NCBI RefSeq assembly: GCF_900184265.1
Contig: NZ_FXXA01000002.1
Location: 762,734-826,733, forward strand
DNA length: 64,000 nt
Direction of reading: 5' to 3'
DNA from: Eggerthella timonensis
GTDB taxonomy: Bacteria > Actinomycetota > Coriobacteriia > Coriobacteriales > Eggerthellaceae
Of the stretch, positions 16,044-54,778 are shown piece by piece. Under the pieces are notes generated by a model. It had not been told where the DNA came from and did no database searches. It saw nothing but the letters and a program-made list of their open reading frames with translations. The stretch's first letter is position 1. Each line of letters begins with the position of its first letter. The position numbers and the translations under genes were made by a program.

Positions 16044-16080
16044 CGACGGAGCGGGGCAGGGGGACGGGCAGCGGGGCAGA

Positions 16081-16170
16081 GGGACGGGGTGAGACAGAGG
16101 GACGGGGTAATTGTCTCATTTTGCGGGCAAAATGAGACAATTACCCCGTCCCTCTGTCTCACCCCGTCCC
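16081..16170. repeat. REP-like palindrome, perfect 44-bp stem (copy 1)
   Basis: The arms 16081-16124 and 16127-16170 are perfect complements with a 2-nt centre, extendable to 16075-16176 with one mismatch. The core reads GAGACAGAGGGACGGGGTAA and TTGTCTCATTTTGC then its complement. A near-identical copy is at 24450-24577. It lies between convergent genes and may also act as a terminator. Confidence 0.9.
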
Positions 16171-16185
16171 CCTGCCTCACCTCTG

Positions 16186-24250: not shown

Positions 24251-24661
24251 GTCCCTCTCTCCTTTCGATGAGAAGCGCGACGGCCCCTCGCCGTCCGCTT
24301 CATCGTGAGGATTTCCCTTGCGGAATCCTTCCCTGCGCCGCTTACCATACGTGCCTGCGCACCTCCCTGCCACACCTTCGCGCGGGTAGTTTTCGAGTTT
24401 TGCCCGATGAAATCCCTACCTGATACGGGTGGGTAGCCGAGATGAGATAGGCCGGTGCGAGACGGGGAGTGAGACAGGGGGACAGGGTGAGACAGAGGGA
24501 CGGGGTAATTGTCTCATTTTGCTCGCAAAATGAGACAATTACCCCGTCCCTCTGTCTCACCCTGTCACGCACCGGCCCGGCCCGACGTCAAACCATGAGC
24601 AAGGGACGAATTGATGGGGATGGGATATACTGGCAGGGAAACAGACGGAGGGTAGGGGCCG
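24251..24661. promoter_or_regulatory. Shared control region of reductase and divergent LuxR gene
   Basis: This 411-bp stretch has no gene. Repeated GGGTAG words (near 24384 and 24430) and an opposed CCCTACC near 24414 may form operator sites for the LuxR regulator. The right half is occupied by the REP-like palindrome at 24450-24577. Confidence 0.45.
24450..24577. repeat. REP-like palindrome (copy 2)
   Basis: The core arms 24481-24522 and 24525-24566 are perfect complements (42 bp). The sequence is almost identical to the palindrome at 16081-16170. An outer stem, GGCCGGTGCG (24450-24459) with CGCACCGGCC (24568-24577), encloses it, with a 21-nt bulge on the left that repeats part of the core (GAGTGAGACAGGGG). 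Confidence 0.88.
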
Positions 24662-33224: not shown

Positions 33225-33286
33225 CGCCCATTCGCCCGAAACACACGCTTCAGCGCTCTCAAACGTGTGTTTCGGGCGAATGGGCG
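33225..33286. repeat. Perfect 23-bp inverted repeat
   Basis: The arms 33225-33247 and 33264-33286 match exactly (left arm CGCCCATTCGCCCGAAACAC plus ACG). It lies between convergent genes, 22 bp from the LuxR stop, and may double as its terminator. Confidence 0.8.
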
Positions 33287-36671: not shown

Positions 36672-36820
36672 CACCTGGAGCGCGGCATCGCGTCGATGCA
36701 CGCGTTGGCACGAAACCGCCGCAATCGCTCATCCCGGGGCCGCCGCCGTATGGCGCGGCCCCTCCTCAACCGGCCCCGCGCGACGCTCCCTCCCGTCGTG
36801 CGGGGCCACTCCATCAGCAC

Positions 36821-36872
36821 TGTCGCCCGATTCGTACGGTTTTTCGCGCAAAACCGTACGAATCGGGCGACA
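36821..36872. repeat. Palindromic repeat, TGTCGCCCGATTCGTACGG family (copy 1, intergenic)
   Basis: The perfect 23-bp arms 36821-36843 and 36850-36872 enclose a 6-nt loop. The outer 19 bp of each arm are identical to those of the copy at 53216-53269. It lies between convergent genes and could terminate both. Confidence 0.88.
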
Positions 36873-36910
36873 AAGTTCGTGGCGTTGTCGACTTCGGCTG
36901 CGTCGAGAGC

Positions 36911-37871: not shown

Positions 37872-37911
37872 CGCGATGCTGGTTGGAACGCGTGTTCCAA
37901 CCAGCATCGCG
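37872..37911. terminator. Perfect 18-bp hairpin next to parS
   Basis: The arms 37872-37889 and 37894-37911 (CGCGATGCTGGTTGGAAC and complement) have a 4-nt loop. It lies just downstream of the cyclase-like gene on the minus strand. There is no T tract, but the stability is high. Confidence 0.6.
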
Positions 37912-52960: not shown

Positions 52961-54778
52961 TCACCCCTCGCGGCAGAGGTCGATGATGTCCTGCTTGGAG
53001 TGAACGTCGAGCTTCTTGTACACGCGCTTCGCGTACGTCTTCACGGTGTTCTCGGATACGTCAAGCGCCCTCGCGATAGCGGCGACCGTCTCGCCGAGCG
53101 CGAGCAACTCGAGCGTTTGGCGCTCGCGGTCGGTGAGGCCGTGCTGGGCGGCCAGGCGGGCGCAGGGGTTCGCGCGCGAGGCGGCGAGGGGCTGCATCGG
53201 GTTCTCGGCGGCGGATTGTCGCCCGATTCGTACGGTTTCGGTACGATTTCCGTACGAATCGGGCGACAAGGCACTCGCGCCCGCGTCCATGGGGGCGGCG
53301 GGGGCAGCGGCGGCGTCGGCCAGGCGCGGCTGGCGCATGAGGGCCGACAGCTCCGCGCGCGTGTGCACGTCGCAGGCGCGGTAGATTTTCTGCGCGTGGT
53401 ATTTCACGGCGCTCGGCGAAAGGTACAGGTCCTGTGCGATGCGGGCGATGGTGCGACCCTCCAGCAGTTGCTTGAAGATGGTGGTCTCCTGCTCGCTCAG
53501 TCCGTACGCGGCGGCGATGCGGTCGAGCTCGGACGCGCCCGCATTTCCGGGCGTCGCCGCGTCGCCGCGCGCGGCTGTCGGCGCGACGGCTTGGGCGCTG
53601 CGAGCCTCGGATGCTGCCGCGCCCTGCTTCGCGGGCGGCGCGCCGTCGGCATCGATGCCGCGCGGGATGCGCTCGCGCCCCAGCAGCCACGACGCCCCCA
53701 GCATCACGAGGTACAGCGTGCCCAGCCCGATGAGCGCGTACCCGGCGTTCGTGCCCGGCAGGTACACGCGGCTCAGCATGCCCGCTTCCGACCCCGCCAG
53801 CAGGCACAGCAGCGACACCGTGTCGCTGGCGGCGAACAGCGGCATGACGGGCACGCGCGCCGCTTTCCCCACCTCGGCGATGGTGCAGGCCAGCACGATG
53901 CCGCACATCATGTAGCCCGTGGTGGCTAGCGTGCCGGCGATGGCGGGCGGGATGGCGTCCACGAGGCCCGGCATCACGAGCAGCCCCAGCGCCGACAACG
54001 GCAGCGCCACGCGGTAGCTGCCTTCCAGCTTGAACGGCTGACGGTACAGCAGCGCGGGCACCGACATGATCACCAGCACGCAGGCGGAGATGCCCAGCAC
54101 GAGGTACTGCATGTGCGTGGGGTCGACGTCGGTTTGCCCCGACAGGCTGGTGACGAACCCGCTGAGCAGCGCGAACAGCCCCACGGCCAGCACGCCCTTG
54201 CCCACGAGCGGCGCGATGTCGGCGATCTGCCCGGAGAACGTGCGCTCGAGCGGCCGCTCGACGCGCAGCTGGGTGGCGCATGCGCACGCCACCAGGAACG
54301 ACGCCACGGTGATGGGGATGTACCACTCCTGCGGGCACAGCAGCACGAGCGCGCACAGCGCGGTGGCGCCCGCGTGGCTTCCCAGTAGGAACAGGTAGCT
54401 GGTGCGGTAGGAGAACGACGGCAGCGCCGACAGCCACAGCAGGCTGAGCAGCGCTTGCCCCACGCCGATGAGCGCCGCGCCCGCCACGAACGCGGCCTGC
54501 GCGCCCATCGGGCACCCGCCCAGCACCAACGCGAATCCCGCGCACAGCGCCACGGCGGCGACGACGGCCGCCCGCGGCCCCAGCGGTTCGCGCACGGCGT
54601 TGCGGGAGCGCAGGACGACCGCGACGAACACGACGACGTGGACCGTGCTGAGCACCGTGCTGTAGGCGTCGCCGTCGAAGGCGGGCACGCTGGCGAATGC
54701 GGTGGTCGCATGGTAGCTGAGAATATTGGCAAGCAGGAGAAACGCATACCCTGCGAAGCATGCTGCGCGCGTCGCCAT
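52961..54778 (-). CDS. Membrane LuxR regulator with two tandem helix-turn-helix domains
   Basis: This protein has 605 residues. About twelve hydrophobic helices fill residues 1-375, as in the other two paired regulators. The C-terminal part has two complete LuxR DNA-binding domains. The first (about 420-482) has YGLSEQETTIFKQLLEGRTI and SPSAVKYHAQKIYRACDVHT. The second (about 541-605) has HGLTDRERQTLELLALGETV and SENTVKTYAKRVYKKLDVHS. The linker contains an 18-codon palindromic repeat (residues 504-521). The second domain looks more canonical. It is divergent from a Tat reductase gene, so control of that gene is likely. A duplicated LuxR HTH in one chain is unusual. Confidence 0.87.
   Translation of the reverse strand: MATRAACFAGYAFLLLANILSYHATTAFASVPAFDGDAYSTVLSTVHVVVFVAVVLRSRNAVREPLGPRAAVVAAVALCAGFALVLGGCPMGAQAAFVAGAALIGVGQALLSLLWLSALPSFSYRTSYLFLLGSHAGATALCALVLLCPQEWYIPITVASFLVACACATQLRVERPLERTFSGQIADIAPLVGKGVLAVGLFALLSGFVTSLSGQTDVDPTHMQYLVLGISACVLVIMSVPALLYRQPFKLEGSYRVALPLSALGLLVMPGLVDAIPPAIAGTLATTGYMMCGIVLACTIAEVGKAARVPVMPLFAASDTVSLLCLLAGSEAGMLSRVYLPGTNAGYALIGLGTLYLVMLGASWLLGRERIPRGIDADGAPPAKQGAAASEARSAQAVAPTAARGDAATPGNAGASELDRIAAAYGLSEQETTIFKQLLEGRTIARIAQDLYLSPSAVKYHAQKIYRACDVHTRAELSALMRQPRLADAAAAPAAPMDAGASALSPDSYGNRTETVRIGRQSAAENPMQPLAASRANPCARLAAQHGLTDRERQTLELLALGETVAAIARALDVSENTVKTYAKRVYKKLDVHSKQDIIDLCREG
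53216..53269. repeat. Palindromic repeat inside the LuxR coding sequence (copy 2)
   Basis: The perfect 20-bp arms 53216-53235 and 53250-53269 (TTGTCGCCCGATTCGTACGG and complement) surround a 14-nt centre. The arms share 19 bp with the intergenic copy at 36821-36872. The element is 54 bp, starts exactly on codon 504 and encodes LSPDSYGNRTETVRIGRQ in frame. Confidence 0.9.

What the first reader, a model, noticed from the sequence alone, without database searches (positions are those of the whole stretch)
53216..53269. Palindromic repeat carried in frame inside a regulator gene
A 54-bp element with perfect 20-bp arms sits exactly on codon boundaries of the LuxR gene (codons 504-521) and encodes an 18-residue linker between two DNA-binding domains. 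Nineteen bases of each arm are identical to an intergenic palindrome at 36821-36872. A repeat that inserts into a protein without breaking it, as Rickettsia palindromic elements do, would be notable in Coriobacteriia. The alternative is gene conversion or chance use of a terminator-like sequence.
Basis: partly seen in the sequence, partly recalled or inferred. Interest (0 to 1): 0.85.

Follow-up and report, generated by a model that had tools for sequence, protein, structure and literature searches.

The report
Palindromic repeat family with nuclease partner
A 54-base DNA palindrome that encodes a loose linker in a regulator protein is one copy of a repeat family scattered through gut bacteria, and the same palindromes bracket a gene for a DNA-binding, nuclease-like protein that may spread or maintain them.

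Summary
In detail: 53216-53269 is a perfect 20-14-20 palindrome on codons 504-521 of a LuxR-type gene, with arms matching an intergenic palindrome at 36821-36872. It belongs to a family of ~60-bp palindromes: 33 sites in this Eggerthella genome, 21 of 137 family genomes, a third window copy at 33226-33285. Arms covary; centres vary. Of 162 distinct sites examined only the LuxR site (three species) was found inside a gene.

At that site three species carry three different versions, each a hairpin in the same frame, 5-6 arm mismatches apart but 0-1 from a copy elsewhere in the same genome. The gene is 91.5% identical between two of them, the 60-mer 31/60.

New: such palindromes bracket a gene for an AbiEi-like protein with a predicted Vsr/homing-endonuclease-like domain (both sides in 7 of 16 homologues, 0 of 475 control genes), in this genome too. 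Left and right palindromes match each other, and solitary copies largely share their dialect. This parallels RAYT/REP with an unrelated partner. Mobility is inferred: five sites compared between two sister genomes were all shared. Rickettsia-like insertion into many genes is not supported.

The parts
53216..53269 (-). The reported element: perfect 20-bp arms, 14-nt centre, in frame as codons 504-521 of the LuxR-type gene
53213..53272 (.). Same element as the 60-position family unit (model R1, E 3.4e-15; this copy was among the 41 used to build R1)
36817..36876 (.). Intergenic copy of the same arm dialect (GATTCGTACGG) between convergent genes; orthologous copy with GATACGTACGG arms in E. sinensis
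33226..33285 (.). Third window copy, other dialect (ATTCGCCCGAAACACACGC), between convergent genes; a shorter hairpin lies at this site in two sister species
52961..54778 (-). Host gene: LuxR-type regulator with a long helical (probably membrane-spanning) N-terminal part and two C-terminal GerE HTH domains, 605 aa
53333..53530 (-). First HTH domain (residues 417-482; pLDDT of 10-residue blocks mostly 68-83)
53189..53332 (-). Inter-domain linker (residues 483-530; pLDDT below 50, no secondary structure) that contains the element
52967..53188 (-). Second HTH domain (residues 531-604; pLDDT of 10-residue blocks mostly 75-85)

Best explanation
The 54 bp is one copy of a family of ~60-bp palindromes in Coriobacteriales. 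Each copy has two ~22-nt arms around a variable centre of about 6 nt, and each genome has one or a few arm dialects. Shown: the copies, their covariation, their mostly intergenic positions, the in-frame LuxR copy, its version change between species, and the fact that palindromes bracket one gene. That gene encodes an AbiEi-like protein fused to a domain with a predicted Vsr/I-Bth0305I-like nuclease fold. Inferred: the AbiEi-like half binds the palindrome, as AbiEi antitoxins bind inverted repeats; the nuclease half cuts or nicks at palindromes; repair or transposition then copies palindromes to new intergenic sites or overwrites existing ones with the resident dialect. The LuxR copy sits in a disordered inter-domain linker, where a swap of one 60-bp copy for another costs only 20 changed residues and keeps the frame. 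In Eggerthella most copies now look like orphans: E. lenta and two further species lack the gene at the threshold used, and this genome keeps one gene of another dialect.
For: Family: 33 sites in the own genome by model R1 at E<=0.1 (one further partial hit dropped); 21 of 137 family genomes, 10 of 48 genera; 20 of 296 genomes of the class. Pairing: arms of one copy differ by 1.20 of 18 positions, arms of different copies in the same genome by 4.60; 10,000 shuffles within genomes give a total of 224 or more against 79 observed (66 of 78 Eggerthella sites used). LuxR site: own 21, G052 22 and G053 20 of 23 pairs formed; own versus G052 has 7 compensated pair changes and 3 other changed pairs, and 31/60 identity in a gene 91.5% identical; the three versions are 5-6 mismatches apart but 0-1 from other copies in their own genome (for G052, four copies of the own genome are equally close). 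Partner: strong hairpins on both sides of 7 of 16 homologues and on at least one side of 13, against 0 and 35 of 475 control genes. Left and right palindromes of a locus match each other (local score 30-58, shuffles at most 18) and differ between most loci, two distant actinomycete homologues included. Prediction tested: the own gene's dialect TTCGCTCCNAAAACACGCC has 16+15 arm matches in this genome and 36+37 in G020, 0 for the reversed pattern. Solitary copies held match the local gene's bracket within 1 mismatch in G075 13/13, G076 5/7, G089 10/14, G086 1/1, but only 3/10 in G065. The gene is enriched in R1 carriers, 8 of 21 against 6 of 116 (not corrected for phylogeny). Structure: pLDDT 86.9; best structural rows are AbiEi 6y8q (Z 8.7, rmsd 6.5, 178 aligned, residues 4-199) and I-Bth0305I 3r3p (Z 8.1, rmsd 2.6, 94 aligned, residues 204-318).
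Against: No movement was seen: in about 200 kb of G075 compared with G076 the five strong sites are all shared and none is polymorphic (one weak one-strand hit in G075, L225, has no counterpart reported). The LuxR copy's own dialect has no matching gene found in this genome. E. lenta (33 R1 sites, and 14+14 arm matches of the TTCGCTCC dialect) and E. sinensis (8+8) have no gene at E<=1e-40. In G065 6 of 10 solitary copies fit the G089 bracket, only 3 its own. 9 of 16 homologues lack a strong hairpin on one side or both, two of these with a short contig flank, and 17 of 30 loci from the phylum-wide search show none. Foldseek alone gave no hit below E 0.1; Z near 8 is close to the level of unrelated folds by the tool's own note. 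Several orthologous sites are simply inherited: in 11 of 36 directed comparisons the orthologue is at least as close as any paralogue. No clean empty site with target duplication was found. Copies at gene 3' ends could be functional sites.
Confidence: 0.6

Rival explanations
1. Functional DNA sites: the palindromes are fixed binding sites of a regulator or chromosome-organising protein (perhaps the AbiEi-like protein), kept by selection on both half-sites, and not mobile. The gene-flanking copies would be its operators.
For: Arms are far more conserved than centres across genera in the 41 copies of A1, though these were picked by arm pattern; five sites are positionally stable between G075 and G076; AbiEi antitoxins autoregulate by binding inverted repeats (PMC7319586 abstract); symmetric changes suit a homodimer.
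Against: Arms of one copy agree with each other much more than with the rest of the same genome, so selection is not simply for one consensus; several dialects coexist in one genome; a copy also sits downstream of the gene; R1 site number within one genus runs 33, 10, 33, 3; the LuxR copy changed dialect inside a gene.
Confidence: 0.22
2. A REP family moved by RAYT tyrosine transposases.
For: Dispersed palindromes at convergent and tandem gene ends, as in REPs (PMC3733652 abstract); a Y1_Tnp gene exists in the own genome.
Against: Y1_Tnp is in 10 of 21 carriers and 60 of 116 non-carriers; E. lenta, G052, E. sinensis and G075 have none at E<=0.001; no clear GTAG or CGTC tag enrichment beside 68 copies; the own Y1_Tnp gene lies over 40 kb from the nearest R1 site.
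Confidence: 0.05
3. RNA-level hairpins: 3' UTR structures that stabilise, process or terminate transcripts.
For: 3' positions; in 35 tandem sites G.U (20) outnumber A.C (10) mismatches in transcript sense, two-sided p 0.099.
Against: In the 18-pair core of A1 19 cells are compensated, 1 is a G.U and 14 are unpaired, so G.U steps are rare there; no T-run at 136 stem ends; no Rfam family at gathering score in the window; does not explain the bracketing of one gene.
Confidence: 0.08
4. A one-off: the LuxR copy came by conversion from the nearby 36821 copy or arose by chance.
For: Identical arms 16.4 kb apart.
Against: Centres and outer arms differ; nine more palindromes with arms within 3 mismatches lie elsewhere in the genome; two sister species carry other dialects at the same codons.
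Confidence: 0.03

Closest known systems
REP sequences with RAYT (TnpA-REP), PMC2817692 and PMC3733652
   Same: Dispersed palindromes, mostly at convergent or tandem gene ends, with species dialects; the partner gene is bracketed by two of its own palindromes; solitary copies largely share the bracket's dialect; intragenic copies are known for REPs.
   Different: The partner is an AbiEi-like protein with a predicted Vsr/homing-endonuclease-like domain, not a Y1/HUH transposase; the unit is ~60 bp with arms of ~22 bp, not 20-40 bp; no GTAG or CGTC tag; tens of copies found, where REPs usually exceed 100.
Rickettsia palindromic elements (RPE), PMC10969869 and PMC2229807
   Same: A palindromic repeat translated in frame inside a gene whose ORF stays open.
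   Different: RPEs are about 105-150 bp and enter many unrelated genes; here one gene site among 162 distinct sites, and the encoded peptide is not conserved.
AbiEi antitoxin of type IV toxin-antitoxin systems, PMC7319586, PDB 6y8q
   Same: Predicted fold of residues 4-199 (Z 8.7); AbiEi binds inverted repeats.
   Different: A C-terminal nuclease-like domain is fused on; no second ORF was called between the two palindromes in five loci; the palindromes are dispersed over the genome.
I-Bth0305I / Vsr-like homing endonuclease, PDB 3r3p
   Same: Predicted fold of residues 204-318 (Z 8.1, rmsd 2.6).
   Different: Fused to an AbiEi-like half and bracketed by palindromes; intron or intein association was not looked for. 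Nuclease activity untested.
Coding palindromes of Nematomorpha mitochondria, PMC6649704
   Same: Perfect inverted repeats tolerated inside coding sequence.
   Different: There both arms encode conserved residues; here the residues vary and belong to a repeat family.

Membership tests
REP (GTAG/CGTC tagged) | Unpaired GTAG or CGTC tag at one end | tested here: not met
   In 30-nt stretches at each end of 68 copies GTAG 3 and 0 (about 2.7 expected), CGTC 18 and 27 (about 20 expected)
REP with RAYT | Y1 transposase gene flanked by the palindromes | tested here: not met
   10 of 21 carriers vs 60 of 116 non-carriers have any Y1_Tnp; the own Y1 gene is over 40 kb from an R1 site
REP | Extragenic palindromes at convergent or tandem gene ends | tested here: met
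   65 convergent, 78 tandem, 13 divergent, 3 inside, 4 undetermined of 163 rows, one site counted twice (home-made gene finder)
Rickettsia palindromic element | In-frame insertion into a protein gene | tested here: met
   LuxR copies in three species, same frame, ORF open
Rickettsia palindromic element | Many unrelated genes hit | tested here: not met
   One gene site only
MITE | Target-site duplication and TIRs of a known transposon | tested here: inconclusive
   Flanks too diverged for a clean empty site
Intrinsic terminator | T-run directly after the stem | tested here: not met
   0 of 136 ends with TTTTT, 4 with TTTT
AbiEi antitoxin (partner gene, N-terminal half) | AbiEi sequence or fold | tested here: met
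   PADLOC AbiEi E 6.1e-10 for the G075 protein; 6y8q top structural row, Z 8.7; but Pfam AbiEi_4 in 6 of 14 only (best 6.4e-5; own protein 16.9 bits, cut-off 25) and NCBIfam far below its cut-off
AbiE type IV toxin-antitoxin system | Adjacent AbiEii toxin gene | tested here: inconclusive
   No second ORF called between the palindromes in the 5 loci looked at; neighbours outside were not scanned for AbiEii
Vsr/EDxHD or DUF559-like nuclease (partner gene, C-terminal half) | Nuclease fold and conserved acidic/lysine residues | tested here: inconclusive
   3r3p Z 8.1, 3hrl Z 7.2; invariant E207, D241, E255, D257, K261; Foldseek best E 0.12; DUF559 E 0.19 in 1 of 14

The most novel reading that the evidence does not exclude
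A class of mobile element distinct from RAYT/REP: an AbiEi-like, inverted-repeat-binding protein fused to a homing-endonuclease-like domain recognises, cuts and overwrites its own palindromes. Its unit (palindrome-gene-palindrome) and solitary palindromes spread in intergenic gaps, genome dialects arise by this in-place conversion, and one copy rewrites a protein linker again and again. Bracketed homologues in distant actinomycete families suggest it is widespread.
Probability: 0.38. Interest if true: 0.92.

Novelty: new variant of a known kind. Interest (0 to 1): 0.8.

Why it matters
[quoted passage not shown] Here a specific gene is bracketed by the palindromes across genera, which makes their origin directly testable by binding, cleavage and knock-out. 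The LuxR site is a natural experiment: the same 20 codons carry three different palindromes in three species, so DNA-level turnover rewrites a protein linker while hairpin and frame persist.

Tried and rejected
RAYT as mobiliser: no association. Intrinsic terminator: no T-run. Rfam: nothing at gathering score in the window; a lax search of 7 loci gave 4 tRNA rows and 5 sub-threshold rows of four other families, one of which (rox1, 28.7 of 58 bits) overlaps an element and is taken as chance. A cognate gene at 12 divergent sites: neighbours unrelated except between sister genomes with the same site and a few shared general protein types. Phage or plasmid carriage: 0 IMG/VR contigs for two arm patterns, no viral relative of the partner gene confirmed, two plasmid hits at 28-33% identity. 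Empty-site alignment in the window: flanks too diverged. Presence/absence between G075 and G076: none polymorphic among five strong sites. A first 49-column pattern was miscounted by one base and found nothing. LuxR structure: poor overall (pLDDT 48.8), used for domain/linker contrast only. PDB sequences: no match for the partner profile at E<=0.1.

Limits: genes were called by a home-made finder trained on these loci. It missed the AbiEi-like genes in L043, L044, L231 and L239, so the neighbours given for the eight copies there are wrong, and an intragenic copy in an atypical gene could be missed. Model R1 came from 41 copies picked by a pattern that already required matching arms, so their covariation is partly by selection; the LuxR copies of G052 and G053 were not in the model. 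Counts by R1 are lower bounds: other dialects, such as the own gene's, escape it, and one search scored at most 40 candidates per genome. The carrier comparisons take it that searches drew the same 137 genomes. The control genes come from the window and from stretches of G052-G054, G075 and G076 only; the phylum-wide loci had no control of their own, used a laxer cut-off, and 4 of their 30 were already known. The nearest of many paralogues was compared with one orthologue, which favours paralogues.

Full report
OBSERVATION. The element at 53216-53269 is real. Its 20-nt arms are perfectly complementary around a 14-nt centre and lie exactly on codons 504-521 of the minus-strand ORF 52961-54778. 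The ORF is a regulator with two LuxR-type HTH domains. Nineteen bases of each arm recur at 36821-36872, with 0.02 matches expected by chance in the window. A third copy of another dialect lies at 33226-33285.

THE FAMILY. In the whole genome (G000, 3.9 Mb, window = C2:762734-826733) the arm pattern with up to 3 mismatches gives 11 complete palindromes of identical length. Forty-one copies from eight Eggerthellaceae genomes gave alignment A1 and covariance model R1. R1 finds 33 sites in the own genome, 33 in G053 (32 examined), 10 in G052 and 3 in G054, 21 of 137 family genomes and 20 of 296 genomes of the class, five of them in two other families of the order. The arms (consensus GCATTGTCGCCCGAAACGTACGG) are conserved and the centre varies. 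In A1 39 cells are changed on both sides of a pair against 18.2 in shuffles (0 of 500 as high); in the 18-pair core 19 cells are compensated, 1 is a G.U and 14 are unpaired. Between the arms of one copy there are 1.20 mismatches in 18, between arms of different copies in the same genome 4.60; 10,000 permutations never fall below 224 against 79 observed (12 of 78 sites with poor pairing dropped).

WHERE COPIES SIT. Of 163 rows (162 distinct sites; G089:C17:55923 occurs in both lists) 65 are convergent, 78 tandem, 13 divergent, 3 inside a gene and 4 undetermined. All three intragenic copies are the LuxR site of three species. In about 200 kb of G075 compared with G076 the five strong sites are all shared. 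In the four Eggerthella genomes nine groups of sites match on both flanks between species. No T-run follows the stems and no GTAG or CGTC tag is clearly enriched.

THE LuxR SITE. The orthologues in G052 (91% identical protein) and G053 (79%) carry a hairpin at the same codons and in the same frame, with the same centre of symmetry, but with other arms. E. sinensis and an uncultured Gordonibacter have a short linker without it; another Eggerthellaceae MAG has a long linker without a hit. Own versus G052 identity is 31/60 in the element and 91.5% over the gene; 7 pairs changed on both sides and 3 otherwise. The three versions are 5-6 mismatches from each other but 0 (own), 1 (G052; four own-genome copies are as close) and 0 (G053) from another copy in the same genome. 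Of 36 directed orthologue comparisons, 25 have a closer paralogue and 11 do not; by the number of non-orthologous copies that are closer, the LuxR site and the 19446 site stand out as replaced and the others look mostly inherited. The linker is predicted disordered (residues 483-530, pLDDT below 50) between two folded HTH domains. I infer that one family member has been swapped for another in place; the fixed length keeps the frame.

THE PARTNER GENE. In four genomes pairs of palindromes about 1.2 kb apart enclose one gene. Its product (about 350-365 aa) gave no Pfam hit for two members queried singly but matches PADLOC AbiEi models (E 6.1e-10); 6 of 14 homologues match Pfam AbiEi_4 weakly. 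Homologues at E<=1e-40 occur in 14 of 137 family genomes: 8 of 21 R1 carriers and 6 of 116 others (p 1.4e-4; phylogeny not corrected). Strong hairpins stand on both sides of 7 of 16 homologues and on at least one side of 13; of 475 ordinary genes, 0 and 35. The own gene (G000:C2:3155716-3156753) is bracketed by palindromes of a dialect that R1 does not see, and the downstream one supplies its stop codon. Predicted from this: solitary copies of that dialect in the same genome. Found: 16+15 arm matches, at least 13 paired, of which 2 bracket the gene; G020 36+37; reversed-pattern control 0. Against a strict gene-dialect link, G053 (14+14) and E. sinensis (8+8) carry this dialect too and have no gene at the threshold. 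Elsewhere solitary copies held match the local bracket in G075 13/13, G076 5/7, G089 10/14, G086 1/1, G065 3/10; 6 of the 10 G065 copies fit the G089 bracket instead. Left and right palindromes match each other at 11 loci, one of which (G109) has its left copy 1.3 kb away; they differ between most loci, two homologues about 32-33% identical in other actinomycete families included. Against this, 17 of 30 loci from the phylum-wide search (33 of 396 genomes) show no strong hairpin beside the gene. In four of five loci looked at, the whole unit lies in a convergent gap, as 65 of the 163 rows above do.

STRUCTURE. The own AbiEi-like protein models well (pLDDT 86.9). Foldseek alone gives no significant hit. 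In the second look the best rows are AbiEi of S. agalactiae (6y8q, Z 8.7, rmsd 6.5, 178 aligned) for residues 4-199, and the I-Bth0305I homing endonuclease catalytic domain (3r3p, Z 8.1, rmsd 2.6, 94 aligned) and an endonuclease-like protein (3hrl, Z 7.2) for 202-318. These are near the tool's stated noise level for Z, but the AbiEi match agrees with the independent sequence match. Invariant E207, D241, E255, D257 and K261 suit a nuclease; that reading of the motif is recalled.

MECHANISM. Shown: family, covariation, in-frame copy, version change at one site, bracketing, a largely matching dialect. Inferred: binding of the palindrome by the AbiEi-like half (AbiEi binds inverted repeats, PMC7319586, abstract read), cutting by the second half, and copying or overwriting by repair. 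The arrangement parallels RAYTs, whose genes are flanked by two REPs and apparently coevolve with them (PMC2817692, abstract read), with a different enzyme. RAYT-type genes themselves show no association. The main rival is a set of fixed protein-binding sites.

LITERATURE. Ten full-text searches of an open-access library listed no paper whose title or shown abstract start describes these palindromes or an AbiEi-nuclease gene bracketed by palindromes; most listed papers were seen only as search listings, lists were cut at 10-20 rows, and most subscription journals are not covered. Passages were read in PMC3733652 (with its abstract), PMC10969869 and PMC2229807; abstracts in PMC6649704, PMC7319586 and PMC2817692.

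Noticed in passing
window 16075-16176 and 24481-24566: Two copies of an unrelated long palindrome (41-49-nt arms, GACGGGGTAATTGTCTCATTTTGC core), not found by model R1.
   Followed up: no
window 37872-37911: Perfect 18-bp-arm hairpin CGCGATGCTGGTTGGAAC... in an intergenic gap.
   Followed up: no
L205 (G052:C1:3046183); orthologous sites of window 33226 in G052 and G053: Collapsed versions: shorter hairpins at orthologous sites that look like loss of the centre of the palindrome.
   Followed up: partly
L196 (G053:C1:797659): A G053 copy lies about 120 bp from an ORF that looks like an IS256-type transposase (name recalled).
   Followed up: no
L271/L286 (G076:C3:101762-102822): The AbiEi-like gene is split into two frames in one of two sister genomes while both flanking palindromes stay intact.
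   Followed up: no
L340 and L343 (G424, G638): Distant homologues in other actinomycete families are also bracketed by matching palindromes of their own.
   Followed up: partly
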